Origin: Planctomycetota bacterium | GTDB lineage: Bacteria > Planctomycetota > Phycisphaerae > Phycisphaerales > SM1A02 | Assembly (NCBI GenBank): GCA_003671055.1 | Contig: QWPV01000027.1 | Location: forward strand, 1-33,234 | DNA: 33,234 nucleotides | Direction: 5' to 3' | In this document: positions 1 to 24,389 of the stretch, piece by piece | Position numbering within the stretch: position 1 is the stretch's first letter | How the letters are laid out: the number at the start of each line of letters is the position of its first letter | Position numbers and translations under genes: made by a program | The notes under the pieces: model-generated | Told to the model about the DNA's origin: nothing | Seen by the model: the letters and a program-made list of their open reading frames with translations, nothing else | Database searches by the model: none

Positions 1-816
1 CTTTGGAAGACGAATACAGAAATCGCTGCCTCGGCCGATTTCGCCTTGGATCTCGATGGTTCCACCGTGCTCTTCGATGATGCGGCGGGTGACCGCGAGT
101 CCGAGACCCGAGCCGCCACCGGTGCGTGTGCTGACATAGGGGCGGAAAATTTCTGCGCGGCGGTCGAGAGCGATGCCGGGGCCGGTGTCAACCACGTGCA
201 GCACGACGGTTTCGCTTTCGCTGGCAGGTTCAAGGATGAGTAGCAGTTCGCGCTGCACATTGGTCGGCATTGTCGCGAGTGCGTGGAGCGCGTTGATCAT
301 GAGGTTGAGCAACGCTTGCTTGAGAAGGCGCTCATCCACGATTGCTTCGACCGCGCTCTGCGGCGCACTCACGCGAAGGACAACATTGGCGCGTTCGGCT
401 TGTGGACGAAAGAACTCTGCGAGATCTGCGAGTGTGCTCGCGAGATTTGTTGTGGTTGGCGCGAGATGAATGCGGCCTGCGAACTTAAGGAAGTCTTCGA
501 GGATGTGCTGCAAGCGCGCGGCTTCGCGACCGACGCTCGCAACCTTGCGCGAGAGTTGTTCGCGTTCTTCGATGGCGAGTGCGGAGAAGTCGATCTCTTC
601 GAGCGCGAGTTGCACGTTGAGTTGAATCGTCGAGAGTGGGTTCTTGATTTCGTGCGCGAGTCCGCCTGTCATCGACCCAAGTTCAGCGAGTCGTTCTTGT
701 CGACGCGCGCGTTCTTCTGCGAGTCGCAGTCTGCGCAATCGTCGACGCACCACGATCGCCGTCGCGCTGAGTGCGACGACTGCACCGAGCGCAAGACCGA
801 TGAAGAAACTATCCAT
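1..816 (-). CDS. Sensor histidine kinase, C-terminus cut by window edge
   Basis: Membrane-anchored two-component sensor kinase. The minus frame is open for 272 codons from the ATG at 816 to base 1 with no stop, so the C-terminus lies outside the window. One membrane segment covers about residues 4-23, followed by a basic stretch. The DHp motif GGLAHEIKNPL has the phospho-accepting His at residue 55. The ATP-binding domain shows an N-box (NLMINALHAL), a G1 box (DTGPGI) and a G2 box (GGGSGLGLA), so the catalytic core looks intact. No periplasmic sensor domain and no PAS domain are visible between the membrane segment and DHp, so it probably senses through a partner or the membrane. There is no clear Shine-Dalgarno before the ATG. 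The first 14 codons and upstream bases are duplicated at 3683-3732. The response regulator is not in the window. Confidence 0.9.
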   Translation of the reverse strand, partial: MDSFFIGLALGAVVALSATAIVVRRRLRRLRLAEERARRQERLAELGSMTGGLAHEIKNPLSTIQLNVQLALEEIDFSALAIEEREQLSRKVASVGREAARLQHILEDFLKFAGRIHLAPTTTNLASTLADLAEFFRPQAERANVVLRVSAPQSAVEAIVDERLLKQALLNLMINALHALATMPTNVQRELLLILEPASESETVVLHVVDTGPGIALDRRAEIFRPYVSTRTGGGSGLGLAVTRRIIEEHGGTIEIQGEIGRGSDFCIRLPK

Positions 817-826
817 GGAGTGAAGA
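777..826. repeat. 50-bp direct repeat, copy A (start of kinase gene)
   Basis: Bases 777-826 match 3683-3732 at 49 of 50 positions, in the same orientation; the only difference is A793 versus G3699. Copy A covers the first 13-14 codons of the histidine kinase and 10 bases upstream of its ATG. Weaker similarity continues for about 15 bases beyond the kinase start, then disappears. The two copies bracket a 2.86-kb island with two unrecognised genes. Confidence 0.9.
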
Positions 827-1508
827 ATGACGCGGACAGGCTAGCAGGTCGCTGAGCAATCCCGCCACTCTGCGCGTTGAGGTCGCCACAGGCCTGCGGT
901 TTGAATGTTTCGACTCGCGCCTCGCTTCACCGCGATCCCAAGCACGAGACCCTTGACGATTCTCCGTCAATGCGTGCATCGCGTACGAGAGAAATGCCCC
1001 GACGCCAGAAGACTTTCGATAGAACCGAGCCTCGGAATCCGTGCTGCTGCGGTGCGTGTCATGCACACGCCGCTTGCGACTGTGTGTGAAGACGATGGGG
1101 ACGAACACCGCGTCGACGGGCGACCCGTGCGCGAGTACGCGTTCCGGAAATCCCGGTTCATTCCGCGGAGCGCGTCGTCCGCCACGCGCTTGGTCGCGCG
1201 AAGCAGATGGTCTCGCTCGTTGAGGTTTTCAACATCAAGTCTGGACTAGAAGTTGCCATGAGACTCGCGGTGTCCGCGCCGCGCAGGGCACTGGCACACA
1301 GGTGCGCAGCGGGTTTTTGACGCGCAAGATTTCGTCGGAGTTTTTCAGCGAGCTGTTAAAAATCGGCGATGGGCATTGACAAGCCCGCAACCACTTGTCA
1401 CGATGATGCAAACTGCTGGTTGTGCCATTGAGATATCGCGCTTGGGGGATCGACGATCTCGGCGCGAGCGAAGAACACCGTACAACGGTCAGTTTCAGGA
1501 ATTGCACT
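817..1508. other. Intergenic region between kinase and island gene
   Basis: About 690 bases with no gene I can defend. Short open frames exist on both strands, but none has a recognisable motif, a good ribosome site or plausible protein composition. It holds a small dyad (GCGTGT at 1054-1059 with ACACGC at 1065-1070) and a promoter/operator candidate at 1376-1404 in front of the next gene. Confidence 0.6.
1376..1404 (+). promoter_or_regulatory. Promoter candidate with overlapping dyad
   Basis: A perfect TTGACA at 1376-1381 is followed, after 17 bases, by CACGAT at 1399-1404, which matches the -10 consensus at 3 of 6. The inverted repeat TGACAAG (1377-1383) / CTTGTCA (1394-1400) overlaps the -35 element and most of the spacer, as an operator would. 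It lies about 105 bases before the start of the gene at 1509. No transcription start is visible from sequence alone. Confidence 0.35.
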
Positions 1509-2966
1509 ATGAAGATCAAGTCAATTGTTGGGATACTGGGGGTGTGGAGCGCATTTCTCGCTGCTGGGACATGGATTGCGCCAGTTGCAGCCTGGTCTCT
1601 GCAGATAGCACCGGTTCACGCGATGACCGAATCGCCGCCTGTGGAACTAGATCAGCAATTCGCAGACGAGTTCACGGCACTGTTCGGAGTCACGCCGAGC
1701 GAAAGCGGTTTGGTTCTATCAGCGCCTGCGCCATTTGATGCAACCGGAAGATCCGAGGTAGCGCTTCAAGAGACCGCCGCGCGGCTACTCCCTCGGATCT
1801 TCACTGAGATCACCGAATCCCCTGAGATTCAGAGCCATCGATCCCCCAACGAGAGGGTTTTCTCGGTCTACGCTGATGTCTACACATCGAGCGGGGTTGT
1901 GCTCGCGCAGTTCCTTGTGCGTTCATTTGAAGACCGCAGCGAGTTCTGGTTCACTGGAATTGCGTCCGGTGCGTTCGTTGACGCACTCATGTCGACCAAG
2001 GAGCCCGAACTCCGATCCGCTCTCTCGCACCTTGCACCGTATCTTCAGGTGAACCTTGACGGGATGTGGGATGAGTTGATTCCGCCTGGATCCTACGAAG
2101 GACCGCAACCGACATCTGATTGCGCTCGCCTCGCGCGAAGCATTGAAATCTGTCGCGCCAGCTTTGCGGCGCGTGCTCGCGAGGCGCAGTCTGGGTTGAT
2201 GGAACAACTTGAACTGTTGGGTGAGTTGCATCGGCAGCGTATCGCAGCGTGCGATGCGGGATACTCCGCTTCCTTGCTTGAGTGTGCCCAGGGGCGCGGT
2301 GCTGCAATCATTGCGGCCGAGGGCGCCTTTGCAAGCGCTAGGGCCGCCGCTGAAGACGCGCGAGACATCGCTTATGAATCGGCGGCGCAATCGCGGAGTA
2401 CCGCCATTGCGCTCGCCGTGGCAGGCGAGCTGAGTTGCATCGCCGCAGCGCACATCGGTTTCTATGCGTGTCTTGCGGCCGCAGGGTGGACGGGACTTGG
2501 AATTCCTGCATGCGTCGCTTCGTTTCTGGCGTTGCAACTTGTTTGTCACGCGGCCTTCGTCGCGGCGGTGCTGATCATCGACAATGCCTATGAGGACGCC
2601 ATCGCTCTTGCGAACATCGCATTCAACCAACAATTGCTAGCCGCCGCGCAGGCGCGAGATGCAGCGATCCTCGCAGCGGATCAGGCGTATGCAGACTGTG
2701 TCAACGCGGCGACCGCTCAGCGAGATGCCTGCATGGACGCGGCGGGTCGGGAGTTTCTCTCAGCTGCCTGCCTTGCATTGCAGGGAGCGAATGCTGCATT
2801 CCGTGAGGCAGTGATTCAGTTCAGGGAGTGTGTTGCGATGGCTCAGAATGAGTTTGGGGAGCTTTGCCCAAACCCTGCGGGGATCCAAGTCACGCCGGAG
2901 CTCGGTTTTCTTGAAGGGGTCGGGGTGGAGGGCTGCGAGTTCGAATGGCCGCCACGGCTTCCATAA
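1509..2966 (+). CDS. Secreted Ala/Cys-rich helical protein, unknown function
   Basis: Not recognised. 485 residues from the ATG at 1509, chosen because CAGGA lies about 9 bases upstream and the N-terminus is then a good signal peptide (basic MKIK, hydrophobic 5-28, with possible cleavage near VAA or VHA). Residues 45-200 look globular. From about 205 to 450 it is strongly helical and alanine-rich, with a hydrophobic stretch near 299-357. It has 14 cysteines after residue 200. Four pairs are spaced exactly C-x10-C (248/259, 310/321, 335/346, 397/408), plus one C-x9-C (205/215). A spacing of 11 keeps both cysteines on one helix face, which suggests disulfide-stapled helical hairpins outside the cytoplasm; that is inference. 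It lies in the repeat-bounded island, upstream of a small membrane protein that may be its partner. Confidence 0.75.
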   Translation: MKIKSIVGILGVWSAFLAAGTWIAPVAAWSLQIAPVHAMTESPPVELDQQFADEFTALFGVTPSESGLVLSAPAPFDATGRSEVALQETAARLLPRIFTEITESPEIQSHRSPNERVFSVYADVYTSSGVVLAQFLVRSFEDRSEFWFTGIASGAFVDALMSTKEPELRSALSHLAPYLQVNLDGMWDELIPPGSYEGPQPTSDCARLARSIEICRASFAARAREAQSGLMEQLELLGELHRQRIAACDAGYSASLLECAQGRGAAIIAAEGAFASARAAAEDARDIAYESAAQSRSTAIALAVAGELSCIAAAHIGFYACLAAAGWTGLGIPACVASFLALQLVCHAAFVAAVLIIDNAYEDAIALANIAFNQQLLAAAQARDAAILAADQAYADCVNAATAQRDACMDAAGREFLSAACLALQGANAAFREAVIQFRECVAMAQNEFGELCPNPAGIQVTPELGFLEGVGVEGCEFEWPPRLP

Positions 2967-3060
2967 TGCTGAACTCTCGCAGCCACGGCGTGAGTCCGAC
3001 CTTTTGAAGTTTGTTGGCTACAAGTGCTTGTCAATACGACTGCTCACCGAGGATTCTCTG

Positions 3061-3528
3061 ATGGCCATTACATCAATCCAGAACGCGCGCGGCGTTCATC
3101 AAGGTCTCGCAATTTCGCTTTTGGGGCTCTACGCGCTACTGCCGATGCTCGTGCTTCTCGTCTGGCTGACTCGCGAGCCGAACGCGTTGATCGGTTGGGT
3201 CGTCGCAATTGGTGCGTTGTATCTTCCGCTCCCTCTGGTCGTGGTTGTTTGGATCTGCGCCGTTCGAGCGCAGCTCGGACTGAGCCAGCCGATGAGGTTC
3301 AAGCGGCGCCCGCAAGTCGTGCTTTGCGTCTCAGGATGCCTCGGACTGGTTCAGATCGCGGCAATAAACGGGGCATTGTGCTGGGCTGTGTGGGCGTCGA
3401 GCACGGATCTCCTTGTGCCTGCAACGATCATCACGGCCGTGTCAGTGGGATTCATGGTGTGGTCGACATTGAGCTTCGTCCGCACGCTGCGATGGGTGCA
3501 CGCGTGCACACAGCCGATCGCCGCGTGA
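3061..3528 (+). CDS. Small four-helix membrane protein, unknown
   Basis: 155 residues, no family recognised. The ATG at 3061 is preferred over an upstream in-frame ATG at 2830 because GAGG sits 9 bases before it and the longer version would overlap the previous gene and add an unstructured basic tail. Four hydrophobic segments lie at about 16-37, 43-67, 85-108 and 118-141. A basic loop (MRFKRR, near 78-83) lies between the second and third, which places that loop in the cytoplasm by the positive-inside rule. It starts 94 bases after the helical secreted protein on the same strand, so the two may be co-transcribed. Function is open; the pairing with a secreted Cys-rich partner is the only clue. 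Confidence 0.65.
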   Translation: MAITSIQNARGVHQGLAISLLGLYALLPMLVLLVWLTREPNALIGWVVAIGALYLPLPLVVVVWICAVRAQLGLSQPMRFKRRPQVVLCVSGCLGLVQIAAINGALCWAVWASSTDLLVPATIITAVSVGFMVWSTLSFVRTLRWVHACTQPIAA

Positions 3529-3682
3529 AAATTGTGTTGTTGCCCTGAGCTTGCCCCGATTCCGTGCCGACCCAAATTGGCGAGAACGCTCGCAAGGAGA
3601 GTGTCATGCCGAGAAACGAACGGAAGCGAAGATCTGACTTCAACTGCCGGCAAAGTTCGCGCGCCGAGCGAATCGTGTAGAG

Positions 3683-3732
3683 CGACTGCACCGAGCGCGA
3701 GACCGATGAAGAAACTATCCATGGAGTGAAGA
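3683..3732. repeat. 50-bp direct repeat, copy B (kinase-start remnant)
   Basis: Second copy of 777-826, 2906 bases away. Read on the minus strand it encodes the same first residues as the kinase (MDSFFIGLALGAV), then runs into unrelated sequence. It is therefore a fragment of a kinase start with no kinase behind it. It sits in the gene-free stretch 3529-3824, where I see nothing else. No transposase, integrase or terminal inverted repeats are visible in the segment between the copies. Confidence 0.9.
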
Positions 3733-3824
3733 CTCAAGCCGACGGACTATGCGTGGCGAATCGGACCGCAGAGCGATCCGCGAAACCATCCGCAAAAAGT
3801 TGCAGCAGATTCACGCGCCGCGCG

Positions 3825-4142
3825 TCAAGCTTCGGTCGTGTCTTTCGACGGCGAATTCACGCGTTCTGCACGAGGAACGCGCGATCCGAGTGAACGCACC
3901 AATGTCGCGGACCAACCTTTTTCTGACTCGCGCGCGGAGTACACGACGCGTTCACCATCGCGTACTGTCTTGAACCCTTCAGACTGTTCGATCACTGTGA
4001 AGTGCAAGAAAATATCTTGATTCTGGGGACCGATGATGAATCCAAATCCCTTGCGAGGATCGAACCATTTGACAACGCCTTCGAGTTCATCGATAGATGC
4101 GGATGGGATCGAGTTGCTGTCAGCTTCTTGTTGAGTCGCCAT
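3825..4142 (-). CDS. Cold-shock domain protein (CspA family)
   Basis: Single-stranded RNA/DNA-binding protein of the cold-shock family, 105 residues. The domain covers about residues 20-85. It shows GVVKWFDPRKGFGFI (containing RNP1, KGFGFI) and DIFLHF, a variant of the usual RNP2 (V)FVHF. There is a polar N-terminal tail of about 20 residues and a basic C-terminal tail of about 20. The family is usually near 70 residues, so both ends are extended. The ATG at 4142 is chosen because GGAG lies 8 bases upstream; an in-frame TTG at 4166 is less likely. It lies downstream of pnp on the same strand but behind a hairpin. Cold-shock proteins and PNPase are functionally linked through RNA unfolding and decay in other bacteria. 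Confidence 0.88.
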   Translation of the reverse strand: MATQQEADSNSIPSASIDELEGVVKWFDPRKGFGFIIGPQNQDIFLHFTVIEQSEGFKTVRDGERVVYSARESEKGWSATLVRSLGSRVPRAERVNSPSKDTTEA

Positions 4143-4350: not shown

Positions 4351-6513
4351 TTACGCACCTGCTGGTGCGGTCTCGGGCTTCTGATCGCGGAGGTATGCCT
4401 TGCGAGAAAGTTTGATGCGACCGTTCTCGTCGACCTGAACCACCTTCACGGTGATGGTGTCGCCGAGTTTCACGACCTCGTTGACGTTCTTCACGAAGCC
4501 GTCTGCGAGTTCAGAAACATGGCACATGCCGTCGGTTCCTGGCGCGAGTTCGACAAAGCAGCCGAACTCCTTGATCGCCACGACCTTGCCCACATACACG
4601 GCGCCGACGCGGATTTCCGCGCCGAGAGCTTCGACTGCCGCTTTCGCGCGCATCGCTGCTTCCGCATTCGAGCACGCGATGAAGACGGTGCCGTCTTCTT
4701 CGATGTCGATCTGCGCACCAGTGGACTCTTGGATGCCACGAATTGTCTTGCCGCCAGGACCGATGAGCTTTCCGATCTTCTCTGGATCGATCTTCACAAT
4801 GGTGATGCGAGGAGCGAGTGGTGAGATGTCGGCGCGTGGTGCTGGGATCGCCTCTTCCATCAACTTGATGATGTGGAGTCGACCGCGAAGTGCTTGCGCG
4901 AAGATCGTCTCAATCTCAGCCACGCCAAGGCCGCGCGCCTTGAGATCGAGCTGAATGCCGGTGATGCCCTCGCGGGTACCGGAGACCTTGAAGTCCATCT
5001 CGCCGAAGAAGTCTTCTTCGCCAATGATGTCAGTGACGTGCGTCACCTTGCCATCGGTGTCGGTGAAACGACCAACCGAGATGCCAGCGCATGTGCCCTT
5101 GATAGGGACGCCTGCATCCATGAGCGCGAGGCAACCGCCGCAAACGCTTGCCATGCTCGACGAACCGTTGGACTCCGTGATGTCGCTCACGATACGAATC
5201 GTGTAGGGGAAATCTTCTGGTGAAGGAAGAATTCCGAGCAGTGAACGCTCAGCAAGCGCGCCGTGACCAACTTCGCGTCGGCCTGGACCAGCGATACGAC
5301 CAGCTTCGCCTGTGCAGAAGGGAGGGAAGTTGTAGTGGAGGTAGAACTTCTTCGCGTACTCAGCGAGAAGACCATCGACGATCTGCTCGTCCTTCTTCGT
5401 GCCGAGCGTGCATGTCACGAGGCTCTGTGTTTCGCCGCGTTGGAAGAACGCGGAACCGTGGGTGCGCGGGAAAATTCCGGTCGACATATCGAGCGCGCGG
5501 ATCTCGTCAAGCCCGCGACCATCGGCGCGAATGCCGTACTGGGACACGAGCTTGTGCGTGATCTTCTTCTCGAGCTTCTGGAACGCTTCCTTCGCTTGAC
5601 GCTGACGCTTCTCCGCCTTCATGTGCTCGGAGTAAGTGAGTCCATCAGCAATCGCGAAGTGCGTCTTGAGGAGTTCATCCTTGAGCGCGCTGACAGCCGC
5701 ATTACGCGCTGCCTTGCTGTGAATCTTGCGTGCTTCGATCATCTTGTCATATGCCTTCTCGGTGACGAGGGCAGTGACTTCTGGTGCAGGGAGTTGAAGT
5801 TCACCCATGCGCTTCTCAGGAGCGCCGCACTTTGCGCGGAGTTCTTCCATGAGATCGAGGATGGGCTTCACGCCTTCTTCGTATGCGAAGCGAATCGCGC
5901 GGAGCATGGTTGCTTCGTCGACTTCAGCAGCGCCGACTTCGATCATGTTGATGCCGTCCTTGTGTCCAGAGAGCACAAGGTCGAGATCGCTGTAATCCAT
6001 CTGCGCCTGCGTGGGGTTGAGCACGAACGCTTCGCCGCTCTCGGTGATGATGCGTCCAACGCGCACCGTCGCGACTGGGCCGAGGAACGGCGCGTCGGTG
6101 ATGTGCAGTGCAGCAGCCGCAGCGCAGCACGCAATCATGTCCGCATCGTTCTGACCATCGTGACTGAACACGATCGTTTGCAGTTGGATCTCATCGAGGA
6201 ATCCCTCTGGAAACAATGGACGAATCGGTCGATCCATCATTCTCATCGTGAGGACTTCCTTCTCAGAAGGCTGACCTTCACGCTTGCGGAAGCCACCTGG
6301 GTACTTACCCGCAGCTGGGGTTTTCTCGCGGTAATCGCAGGTAAGTGGGAAGAAGTCGATACCCAAACGTGGGTTCGCGCGGACTGCTGTCGCGAGGACA
6401 ACAGTGTCTGCGTAGGTTGCGAGGACTGCGCCGTGCGCGAGCTTCGCGACGCGGCCAGTTTCAAAGCGGAGCGTGCGCCCGCCGACGAGTTTCTCAACGA
6501 TTGTGACTGCCAT
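4351..6513 (-). CDS. pnp: Polynucleotide phosphorylase (PNPase)
   Basis: 3'-to-5' phosphorolytic exoribonuclease, also able to add nucleotides; a core enzyme of mRNA decay. 720 residues, the usual size. Two RNase PH-like cores are joined by a helical region. The second core carries TESNGSSSMASVCGG and IGEEDFFGEMDFK, which retains both aspartates equivalent to E. coli D486 and D492. A KH domain lies at about 570-630, with GxxG as IGPGGKT near 584-590, and an S1 domain at about 637-707. The start is the ATG at 6513, where AGGAAG lies about 14 bases upstream. It follows rpsO on the same strand, the conserved rpsO-pnp order. The 259-base gap between them holds two hairpins, which fits the family habit of leader-mediated autoregulation. 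A perfect CGCACC/GGTGCG mini-dyad overlaps the last codons. Confidence 0.97.
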   Translation of the reverse strand: MAVTIVEKLVGGRTLRFETGRVAKLAHGAVLATYADTVVLATAVRANPRLGIDFFPLTCDYREKTPAAGKYPGGFRKREGQPSEKEVLTMRMMDRPIRPLFPEGFLDEIQLQTIVFSHDGQNDADMIACCAAAAALHITDAPFLGPVATVRVGRIITESGEAFVLNPTQAQMDYSDLDLVLSGHKDGINMIEVGAAEVDEATMLRAIRFAYEEGVKPILDLMEELRAKCGAPEKRMGELQLPAPEVTALVTEKAYDKMIEARKIHSKAARNAAVSALKDELLKTHFAIADGLTYSEHMKAEKRQRQAKEAFQKLEKKITHKLVSQYGIRADGRGLDEIRALDMSTGIFPRTHGSAFFQRGETQSLVTCTLGTKKDEQIVDGLLAEYAKKFYLHYNFPPFCTGEAGRIAGPGRREVGHGALAERSLLGILPSPEDFPYTIRIVSDITESNGSSSMASVCGGCLALMDAGVPIKGTCAGISVGRFTDTDGKVTHVTDIIGEEDFFGEMDFKVSGTREGITGIQLDLKARGLGVAEIETIFAQALRGRLHIIKLMEEAIPAPRADISPLAPRITIVKIDPEKIGKLIGPGGKTIRGIQESTGAQIDIEEDGTVFIACSNAEAAMRAKAAVEALGAEIRVGAVYVGKVVAIKEFGCFVELAPGTDGMCHVSELADGFVKNVNEVVKLGDTITVKVVQVDENGRIKLSRKAYLRDQKPETAPAGA

Positions 6514-22485: not shown

Positions 22486-23586
22486 GTGTCGACTCCTTTG
22501 CGGATACTCCTTATTAGGCCTAGCGCGCTCGGCGATGTAGCTCGAAGCGTGCCGGTGCTTGTGTCCCTTCGGAGCGCATATCCGGAGGCCAAGATCTCTT
22601 GGCTCCTGCAGGACGGCTTCGAGGATGTGGTTCGGACGCATCCCGCGCTCTCTGCAATCGTGCCGTTCCCTCGCAAGCAGCTTGCGCGATGGTGGACTCC
22701 GCGTGGCTTGCGCGACAGCTTCGCGTTCCTAAACTCACTTCGTGGGAAGTTTGATCTCGTTGTTGATGCGCAGGGGTTGTTTCGATCCGGCCTCTTTGCG
22801 TGGTCGACGCGCGCGCCGAGGCGCATTGGGTTTCGCGATGCGAAGGAATGCGCTGCGATTTTCTACAACGAACGGATTCGCAATGAAGCCACGGAATCCA
22901 ATCGTCATGCGGTGCAACGCATGTTGTCGCTTCTTGAAGGTGCGTCAATTCCGACTGTGCGCGATAGCCGCCTCTACACACCGCCAGATGCACAAGAGCG
23001 TTGGAGCGACTTCGCGCGCCGAGAGGGCATCAGTGGTCGAACTGCGCTGCTTGCAACAACATCGCGTTGGGCGAGCAAGGACTGGCCGCGTTCGCATTGG
23101 CGATCACTTGCTGAGGCGCTGCTTGCGCGTGGCTACGAGCGAATCCTCTTCACTGGAACCGCGAGCGAACGCGCGCAAGTTGCAGCAGCGATGCCAGAAG
23201 GTCGTGCGCGCTTGTCGTCGATTGATCTTGCAGGGCGCACAGATCTTGGGATGACGATGGCGGCGATTCAATCAAGTGCGCTGGTGATCTCCAACGATTC
23301 TGCTGCACTGCACATCGCAGCGGGACTGCAACGACCGCTGCTCAGTTTGTTTGGCCCGACAGATCCAAGAGAGTCGGCGCCGTTTCAGCGACAAGCGTCA
23401 GTCGTTCAAAGTCGTCTGGCTGCGGAGTTCCTTGCGCTCGGTGGGCACTATCGCGATCGAAACATCGGGGACAAAATCATGCAGGGGATTGAAGTCCACG
23501 ACGTGCTCAGCGCGCTCGACGCTGCGCAGCATCTCGCGGGACTTTCGGAGTCGTCTGTCGCGCTTGTGGAAGAGGGCATCGCGTGA
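22486..23586 (+). CDS. Heptosyltransferase, glycosyltransferase family 9
   Basis: Adds a heptose from ADP-heptose to the lipid A-Kdo inner core, or a related step. 366 residues in a GT-B fold. The N-terminal part has ILLIRPSALGDVARSVPVL (the GD of the family acceptor motif), then WLLQDGFEDVV and FDLVVDAQGLFRSGLFAW, typical of WaaC-like enzymes. The C-terminal part has NDSAALHIAAGLQRPLLSLFGPTDP, the donor-binding signature. GTG start at 22486; no clear ribosome site. It is the first gene of a tightly packed run with maf, a membrane protein, lpxK and hldE. hldE makes the ADP-heptose donor, so context supports a heptosyltransferase rather than another GT9 enzyme. Confidence 0.9.
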   Translation: MSTPLRILLIRPSALGDVARSVPVLVSLRSAYPEAKISWLLQDGFEDVVRTHPALSAIVPFPRKQLARWWTPRGLRDSFAFLNSLRGKFDLVVDAQGLFRSGLFAWSTRAPRRIGFRDAKECAAIFYNERIRNEATESNRHAVQRMLSLLEGASIPTVRDSRLYTPPDAQERWSDFARREGISGRTALLATTSRWASKDWPRSHWRSLAEALLARGYERILFTGTASERAQVAAAMPEGRARLSSIDLAGRTDLGMTMAAIQSSALVISNDSAALHIAAGLQRPLLSLFGPTDPRESAPFQRQASVVQSRLAAEFLALGGHYRDRNIGDKIMQGIEVHDVLSALDAAQHLAGLSESSVALVEEGIA

Positions 23587-24389
23587 ACGCGAATTTTCCA
23601 CTCATTCTTGCGAGCGGTTCGCCTCGCCGCGCGTTGATGCTCCGAGAGGCGGGATTTGCGCCGCAGGTTGAAGCAGCAGACATTGATGACGCTGCAGTGC
23701 ATCTTGAAACGCACTCGGTGGAAGAGTTGACGCTCGCGCTTGCGTTGTTCAAGGCGCGCCGCTTTCCACTCATTCTTGCGAGCGGTTCGCCTCGCCGCGC
23801 GTTGATGCTCCGAGAGGCGGGATTTGCGCCGCAGGTTGAAGCTGCAGACATTGATGACGCTGCAGTGCATCTTGAAACGCACTCGGTGGAAGAGTTGACG
23901 CTCGCGCTTGCGTTGTTCAAGGCGCGCCGCGTGGAGATGATGCGTCGCGCACGCGGTGCGGAGGCTGCCGTGATTCTTGCAGCAGACACGATGTGCGCAC
24001 TTGATGGCGAACTCATCGGGAAACCAAGCGACGCTGCGCACGCAGACAAGATGATCCGCGCGTTTGAAAATCGGCCTCACGATGTGGTGACTGCGTGGTG
24101 CATCATTGCGCCCGACGGTTCGCGCGTGCTCGACTCAGATTGCAGCATCGTGCATGTTGGCGCACTGACGGATGCACAGCGCGCGCATCATCTCGACAGT
24201 GGCGCATGGAAAGGCAAGGCAGGTGGCTACAACTTTCCCGAAGCACTCGCAGCTGGATGGCCAGTGCGTTGCGAGGGATTGTGGGAAACAGTCGTCGGAC
24301 TTCCGCTCATTCGATTCGCATCGGTGCTCGAGGAAACATTGCGAACTGGTTGTACGGCGCATCTACGCGTTGAAGGTGGCACCGCGTGA
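23583..24389 (+). CDS. Maf-type nucleotide pyrophosphatase with duplicated N-terminus
   Basis: Maf proteins hydrolyse dTTP/UTP or modified nucleotides to monophosphates. This one is 268 residues, where about 190-210 is normal. The excess is a perfect in-frame tandem duplication: residues 5-60 repeat as 61-116. Both copies contain LASGSPRRALMLREAGF, the substrate-binding N-terminal motif. After copy 2 the protein continues normally: VILAADTMCALDGELIGKPSD (catalytic Asp in ADTM), DVVTAW, SGAWKGKAGGYNFPE and GLWETVVGLPL. Copy 2 plus the rest is a complete 212-residue Maf, so copy 1 is an N-terminal add-on. GTG start at 23583 overlaps the previous stop (GTGA). AEKAGGY-type residues read KGKAGGY. 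Confidence 0.92.
   Translation: MNANFPLILASGSPRRALMLREAGFAPQVEAADIDDAAVHLETHSVEELTLALALFKARRFPLILASGSPRRALMLREAGFAPQVEAADIDDAAVHLETHSVEELTLALALFKARRVEMMRRARGAEAAVILAADTMCALDGELIGKPSDAAHADKMIRAFENRPHDVVTAWCIIAPDGSRVLDSDCSIVHVGALTDAQRAHHLDSGAWKGKAGGYNFPEALAAGWPVRCEGLWETVVGLPLIRFASVLEETLRTGCTAHLRVEGGTA
23595..23930 (+). repeat. 168-bp in-frame tandem duplication inside maf
   Basis: Copy 1 is 23595-23762 and copy 2 is 23763-23930. They differ at one base only, A23675 versus T23843, a synonymous GCA/GCT alanine change. 167 of 168 identity with no frame change marks a very recent event, or less likely an assembly error. Confidence 0.97.

What the first reader, a model, noticed from the sequence alone, without database searches (positions are those of the whole stretch)
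777..3732. Two-gene island bracketed by a 50-bp copy of a kinase gene start
Bases 777-826 and 3683-3732 agree at 49 of 50. Both copies carry the first codons of the histidine kinase, but only copy A continues into the kinase. The 2.86 kb between them holds two unrecognised genes: a secreted Cys-rich helical protein and a four-helix membrane protein. No transposase or integrase is visible. Either a segment was inserted with duplication of the target, or a tandem duplication of the kinase's 5' end was later filled. The island may move or be lost by recombination between the copies.
Basis: partly seen in the sequence, partly recalled or inferred. Interest (0 to 1): 0.72.

Follow-up and report, generated by a model that had tools for sequence, protein, structure and literature searches.

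The report
Gene-pair insertion flanked by gene-end copies
In one uncultured planctomycete, two unknown genes were inserted beside a sensor-kinase gene together with a 50-base copy of the kinase's start, and the same genome holds at least four similar insertions with no jumping-gene enzyme, which suggests a recurring and unexplained way of adding small gene pairs at the ends of genes.

Summary
Bases 777-826 and 3683-3732 match at 49 of 50 and occur nowhere else in the genome. The insertion reading is also right. In 29 other genomes of the family, including three congeners with only 68-80 bp at this spot, the cold-shock gene lies directly beside the kinase. Only this genome carries the 2,856-bp insert. 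Assembly error is unlikely, because contig-end overlaps of exactly 127 bp show an assembly word far longer than 50.

New here: this is not a one-off. In 1.96 Mb of the genome I found four more inserts (0.8-2.2 kb) flanked by 40-67 bp direct repeats of one neighbouring gene's end. One carries a MntA/HepT-like toxin-antitoxin pair and sits at the other end of the same kinase. Congeners show clean empty sites for that one and one other; a third also lost a neighbouring gene, and the fourth is complex. The repeats share no sequence, vary in length and hug the gene terminus. No insert encodes a recognisable recombinase, and the genus lacks Ku.

I favour transposase-independent illegitimate insertion that re-copies the neighbouring gene's end. 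An integrase acting in trans and one-sided homologous capture are rivals. Cargo function is unknown (effector-immunity-like by analogy only). Current movement or loss was not shown.

The parts
1..816 (-). Histidine kinase gene (runs off the contig end); its 5' end is copy A
   Evidence: HisKA E 1e-10, HATPase_c E 5e-21; 77-81% identical orthologues in three congeners
777..826 (-). Copy A of the 50-bp direct repeat, attached to the kinase gene: 40 coding bases plus 10 bases of leader
   Evidence: 49/50 identical to 3683-3732; only two copies in the genome
827..3682 (.). The insert, 2,856 bp, absent from the same locus in 29 family relatives
   Evidence: composition at the 79th percentile of the genome
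827..1508 (.). Left end of the insert, no recognisable gene, no other copy in the genome; must now supply the kinase's upstream region
   Evidence: no related stretch beyond 17-29 bp chance matches; no consensus sigma-70 promoter found
1509..2966 (+). Cargo gene 1: secreted, Cys-rich 485-aa protein, long helical hairpin (residues 204-325 and 332-449); possible effector (inferred)
   Evidence: one distant relative, 25% identical over most of its length, in another genus of the family
3061..3528 (+). Cargo gene 2: 155-aa helical membrane protein without convincing relatives
3683..3732 (-). Copy B of the repeat, free copy of the kinase 5' end; at the one mismatch it carries the base of two of the three congeners
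3733..3824 (.). Native remainder of the csp-kinase intergenic region
   Evidence: Position corresponds to the 68-80 bp gap in congeners
3825..4142 (-). Cold-shock domain gene (csp), native neighbour
   Evidence: CSD E 5e-17; about 80% identical and adjacent to the kinase in congeners
4351..6513 (-). Polynucleotide phosphorylase gene (pnp), native neighbour (name by recognition of the protein)
   Evidence: 93-96% identical and syntenic in congeners

Best explanation
A 2,856-bp segment with two genes was inserted between csp and the kinase in this lineage, and the event left a second 50-bp copy of the kinase's 5' end so that the kinase stayed intact (insertion and duplication: shown). It is one of at least five such insertions in the genome, each flanked by a different 40-67 bp direct repeat of one neighbouring gene's end (shown). 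The mechanism I think most likely is transposase-independent illegitimate insertion: a break or stalled fork near a gene end is repaired while foreign or displaced DNA is captured, with re-copying of about 50 bp of the flank (inferred). Selection keeps the events in which both flanking genes survive. The cargo are small, mostly two-gene modules, at least one of them toxin-antitoxin-like, which could help explain why the repeats have not recombined the insert out (inferred).
For: Empty site in three congeners and contiguous synteny in 29 family genomes. Four more inserts of the same anatomy in 1.96 Mb, with clean empty sites for C46 and C39. Repeat lengths vary (40, 50, 50, 63, 67) and share no core sequence, unlike one transposase or integrase. 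No recognisable recombinase in any insert. Two-copy unique short repeats in the genome are local and direct, and unfilled tandem duplications of 33-189 bp also occur. C34 contains an rplK fragment and DNA closer to congener G003 than the resident gene, showing patchwork capture.
Against: Repeat outer edges lie only 0-10 bp past the gene terminus (Fisher p 0.002-0.009), and at the single mismatches in C21 and C12 the gene-attached copy is the odd one; both fit a gene-end copy that came with the insert better than a plain target duplication. Ku is absent from the genus, so classical end joining is not available. The length range 40-67 bp is narrow for an unguided process. The five cases were collected after the fact.
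Confidence: 0.5

Rival explanations
1. Site-specific integration in trans: the insert is an integrase-less (cis-mobilizable) element whose attachment site mimics the gene end and restores the gene. Copy A came with the element; copy B is the displaced original end.
For: Repeat edge at the gene terminus in all five cases; gene-attached copy is the derived one at the mismatches of C21 and C12; a precedent for integrase-less islands between gene-end repeats exists at ssrA in Dehalococcoides (PMC3146451).
Against: Five different genes, no shared core among the repeats, no integrase in any insert, no third copy of the site; would need several specificities.
Confidence: 0.2
2. One-sided homologous capture (homology-facilitated illegitimate recombination): DNA from a close relative carrying a gene end followed by the two genes crossed over within the gene end, and the other side was joined illegitimately about 50 bp further inside the resident gene.
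For: C34 holds DNA 94% identical to congener G003 where the resident gene is 77% identical; repeats end where gene homology would end.
Against: At 98-100% coding identity a donor's leader or downstream bases should align too, and they do not; the cargo is absent from the three congeners at any site.
Confidence: 0.2
3. A 50-bp tandem duplication of the kinase start arose first and the two genes were later inserted exactly between the copies.
For: Tandem duplications of 33-189 bp exist in this genome, one in this window at 23595-23930.
Against: Insertion exactly at a duplication joint would have to happen five times independently.
Confidence: 0.07
4. Assembly artefact: a false join at a 50-bp repeat.
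For: The source is a fragmented draft genome of 100 contigs.
Against: Pairs of contig ends overlap by exactly 127 bp, so the assembly word was 127 and a 50-bp repeat is resolved; insert composition is that of the genome; the two copies differ at one base.
Confidence: 0.03

Closest known systems
Integrase-less (cis-mobilizable) genomic islands between gene-end direct repeats, e.g. ssrA islands of Dehalococcoides (PMC3146451)
   Same: Insert flanked by the gene end and a direct repeat of it; no recombinase in the insert; target gene stays intact; empty sites in relatives
   Different: There one site with one 20-bp core, served by a serine recombinase in sister islands; here five different genes, 40-67 bp, no shared core and no recombinase seen
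Target site duplication by transposons and insertion sequences
   Same: Direct duplication of target DNA on both sides of the insert
   Different: No transposase, no terminal inverted repeats noted, duplication is much longer than the short ones insertion sequences make and varies between cases
Filler-DNA insertion with flank duplication during break repair (described in plants; from memory) and double illegitimate recombination during natural transformation (from memory)
   Same: Captured DNA, variable-length flank duplication, patchwork of local and donor fragments (C34)
   Different: Bacterial case here keeps to gene ends and a narrow 40-67 bp range; Ku is absent, so the joining machinery is unknown
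MntA/HepT toxin-antitoxin module (insert at C46)
   Same: Nucleotidyltransferase and HepT-like genes adjacent on one strand
   Different: Scores are below the NCBIfam equivalog cut-offs; the kinase-start insert carries unrelated proteins

Membership tests
Cis-mobilizable element / genomic island with att sites | Direct repeats (attL, attR) at both ends, one completing the target gene | tested here: met
   Copy A completes the kinase, copy B is free
Cis-mobilizable element / genomic island with att sites | Empty attachment site in relatives | tested here: met
Cis-mobilizable element / genomic island with att sites | Attachment core shared with an element that carries the recombinase | tested here: not met
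   No further copy in the genome or, as a 25-bp exact core, in viral contigs; no core shared by the five inserts. An element outside the held data is not excluded
Cis-mobilizable element / genomic island with att sites | Excision as a circle | not testable with these tools
   No reads available
Transposon / insertion sequence | Transposase gene in the element | tested here: not met
   Only two ORFs with coding character, no family match
Transposon / insertion sequence | Fixed, short target duplication | tested here: not met
   40, 50, 50, 63 and 67 bp
Ku-dependent non-homologous end joining | Ku protein in the genome | tested here: not met
   PF02735 absent from all four genomes of the genus; control Bacillus subtilis rings
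Effector-immunity or toxin-antitoxin pair (the cargo) | Toxic product neutralised by its partner | not testable with these tools
   Only analogy: secreted plus membrane protein here, secreted plus lipoprotein-like at C39, MntA/HepT-like at C46

The most novel reading that the evidence does not exclude
This planctomycete lineage has an unrecognised process that inserts small two-gene, conflict-type cassettes at gene ends and rebuilds the gene with a 40-67 bp copy of its end, without any recombinase carried by the cassette.
Probability: 0.15. Interest if true: 0.85.

Novelty: new variant of a known kind. Interest (0 to 1): 0.55.

Why it matters
Bacterial genomes gain many orphan genes in small islets whose route of entry is unknown. 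Here five recent entries in one genome keep the same kind of scar, a duplicated gene end of 40-67 bp with the gene intact. The scar can be searched for in any genome with close relatives, which makes the entry mechanism testable. It also singles out orphan gene pairs that may be addictive modules.

Tried and rejected
Homology of the flanks beyond the 50 bp, tested with dinucleotide shuffles: not significant. Cargo proteins searched in Pfam, PHROGs, NCBIfam, PADLOC and viral contigs, gene 1 also in phages, plasmids and PDB sequences, gene 2 also in phages: no significant match. Fold search of gene 1 gives only generic coiled-coil matches at low TM-score, so the SMC-like and pore-former names in that list are not evidence. 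The gene downstream of the distant homologue in G029 is not homologous to cargo gene 2, and no gene-end repeat flanks that locus. RNA families and tRNA attachment at the site: none. A GGACAGGC motif near some insert ends belongs to a genome-wide REP-like family and is not specific. Ku-based end joining: no Ku. Paper searches gave no direct precedent for small inserts with gene-end repeats outside integrase islands.

Full report
Check of the observation. Bases 777-826 and 3683-3732 are a direct repeat with 49/50 identity. The chance expectation in the window is about 4e-19. The genome (2.85 Mb, 100 contigs, 95.8% complete) has no third copy. The repeat consists of the first 40 bases of the kinase gene (minus strand, ATG at 816-814) and 10 bases of its leader. 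Copy A continues into the kinase; copy B does not. The edge inside the gene is sharp. Past 826, 11 of 17 further bases match, but alignment of the flanks does not exceed shuffles.

Is the insert real and specific to this lineage? The window is contig C21 of a planctomycete draft genome; a same-family relative is titled 'uncultured Planctomycetia bacterium'. In three congeners the kinase start and the csp stop are separated by 68-80 bp, with pnp, csp and kinase in the same order. In all 29 other family genomes whose csp locus was fetched, those three included, pnp, csp and kinase lie together within about 3 kb. The window genome alone has about 3 kb between kinase and csp. The empty site is therefore the ancestral state. 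An assembly artefact is unlikely: eight pairs of contig ends overlap by exactly 127 bp, the signature of a k = 127 graph, in which a 50-bp repeat is resolved.

The cargo. Gene 1 (1509-2966) encodes 485 aa with a signal-peptide-like start, a small alpha/beta part and two helices of about 120 residues that form a hairpin with cysteines along it (the hairpin is confident, the N-terminal half is not). It has one distant relative, 25% identical over most of its length, in another genus of the family. No other convincing relative was found in samples of 400 genomes of the order and 392 of the phylum. Gene 2 (3061-3528) is a 155-aa helical membrane protein without convincing relatives. Neither gene has a significant family match. 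Base composition is that of the genome (79th percentile of tetranucleotide distance).

It is not a single case. I read 1.96 Mb of the same genome and looked for local direct repeats. After setting aside REP-like families, paralogous or internal coding repeats, adjacent tandem duplications and two complex regions that I did not resolve (C1, C60), four more inserts of the same anatomy remain. C46: 40 bp, identical copies, the 3' end of the topoisomerase VI-A gene; between the copies an 811-bp insert with a nucleotidyltransferase and a HepT-like gene. In congeners this topoisomerase gene ends right beside the kinase's 3' end, so C46 and the window contig are neighbours and the kinase carries such an insert at each end. 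C12: 50 bp, 98%, the 3' end of a PDZ-peptidase gene, two genes between; in congeners a gene with a UVR-like C-terminus lies downstream, which this genome lacks at the site. C39: 67 bp, 91%, the last codons of a gene that in congeners directly precedes a tRNA-dihydrouridine synthase gene; between the copies a secreted 447-aa protein and a lipoprotein-like protein. C34: 63 bp, 98%, the 3' end of an amidohydrolase gene; a complex locus with a nucleotidyltransferase-like ORF, a second 126-bp duplication and an 89% fragment of rplK. There the second copy and about 110 bp beyond it are 94% identical to congener G003, although the resident gene region is only 77% identical to it.

What the set says about mechanism. 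Repeat lengths vary (40, 50, 50, 63, 67) and the repeats share no core, which argues against one transposase or one integrase. Two-copy unique repeats of 32-80 bp in this genome are nearly all local and direct, so the duplication belongs to the insertion event or to local tandem duplication, which also occurs (about a dozen non-REP cases). The genus has no Ku, so classical end joining is unlikely. The outer edge of each repeat lies only 0-10 bp beyond the gene terminus; under a simple placement model this is unlikely to be chance (Fisher p 0.002-0.009), but the set is small and was assembled after seeing the data. At the single mismatch in C21 the free copy carries the base of two of three congeners, and in C12 the free copy shares its base with one congener while the gene-attached base is in none. 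These last two points favour a gene-end copy that came with the insert (attachment-site mimic, or a donor's gene end) over a plain target duplication. C34 shows that fragments closer to a congener have entered.

Conclusion. Shown: a lineage-specific insertion, a duplicated gene end, recurrence in the genome, no recognisable recombinase in the inserts, no Ku in the genus. Inferred: illegitimate, repair-associated capture with re-copying of the gene end as the most likely route (0.5), against integrase action in trans (0.2), one-sided homologous capture (0.2), duplication first (0.07) and artefact (0.03). Not shown: mobility, excision and the function of the cargo. Reading the cargo as effector-immunity pairs rests only on analogy with the MntA/HepT-like insert and on the secreted-plus-membrane or secreted-plus-lipoprotein layout. 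One likely consequence is that the kinase, which in relatives follows csp on the same strand at 68-80 bp, is now cut off from csp transcription by two oppositely oriented genes (inferred).

Comparison with known systems. Integrase-less islands between gene-end repeats are known, for example at ssrA in Dehalococcoides (PMC3146451), but there the site is single, its core is 20 bp, and sister islands carry a serine recombinase. The search for a shared core failed here, so I do not file the insert as a cis-mobilizable element; it may still have entered in a similar way.

Noticed in passing
L158:14868-15758 (genome contig C46:74868-75758): MntA/HepT-like pair flanked by identical 40-bp copies of the 3' end of the topoisomerase VI-A gene; in relatives this gene adjoins the kinase of the window, so C46 and the window contig are neighbours.
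   Followed up: yes
L132:2361-4302 (genome contig C12): Two-gene insert flanked by 50-bp copies (98%) of the 3' end of a PDZ-peptidase gene; a gene with a UVR-like C-terminus found there in congeners is missing.
   Followed up: partly
L185:959-3319 (genome contig C39): Secreted-protein plus lipoprotein-like insert flanked by 67-bp copies (91%) of a gene's last codons; empty site in three congeners. The following dus gene has a short internal tandem duplication near its start that appears to shift the frame.
   Followed up: partly
L180:6150-10648 (genome contig C34): Patchwork locus between an amidohydrolase gene and rplK: duplicated gene end, second 126-bp duplication, stray rplK fragment, and DNA closer to congener G003 than the resident gene.
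   Followed up: partly
23595-23930: Tandem duplication of 168 bp (99%, 56 codons, in frame) that doubles the N-terminal part, with its LILASGSPRR motif, of a Maf-like protein (ORF 23583-24389).
   Followed up: no
L152, L155 and other genome contigs (C24, C46, C16, C33, C40): REP-like palindromic family around TTCTGCCCCAAGCGGCAAAATCATCA, and a second family around TTGGACAGGCAAGCC / GGGACAGGCACAATT, in many copies.
   Followed up: no
L060:5698-7812: The only relative of cargo gene 1 is also followed on the same strand by a small membrane-protein ORF, but one unrelated in sequence to cargo gene 2.
   Followed up: partly
L100-L146 (C1 about 69.9-76.0 kb) and L233 (C60 about 2.0-8.9 kb) of the same genome: Two regions with several local direct duplications of 38-1170 bp that were not resolved.
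   Followed up: no
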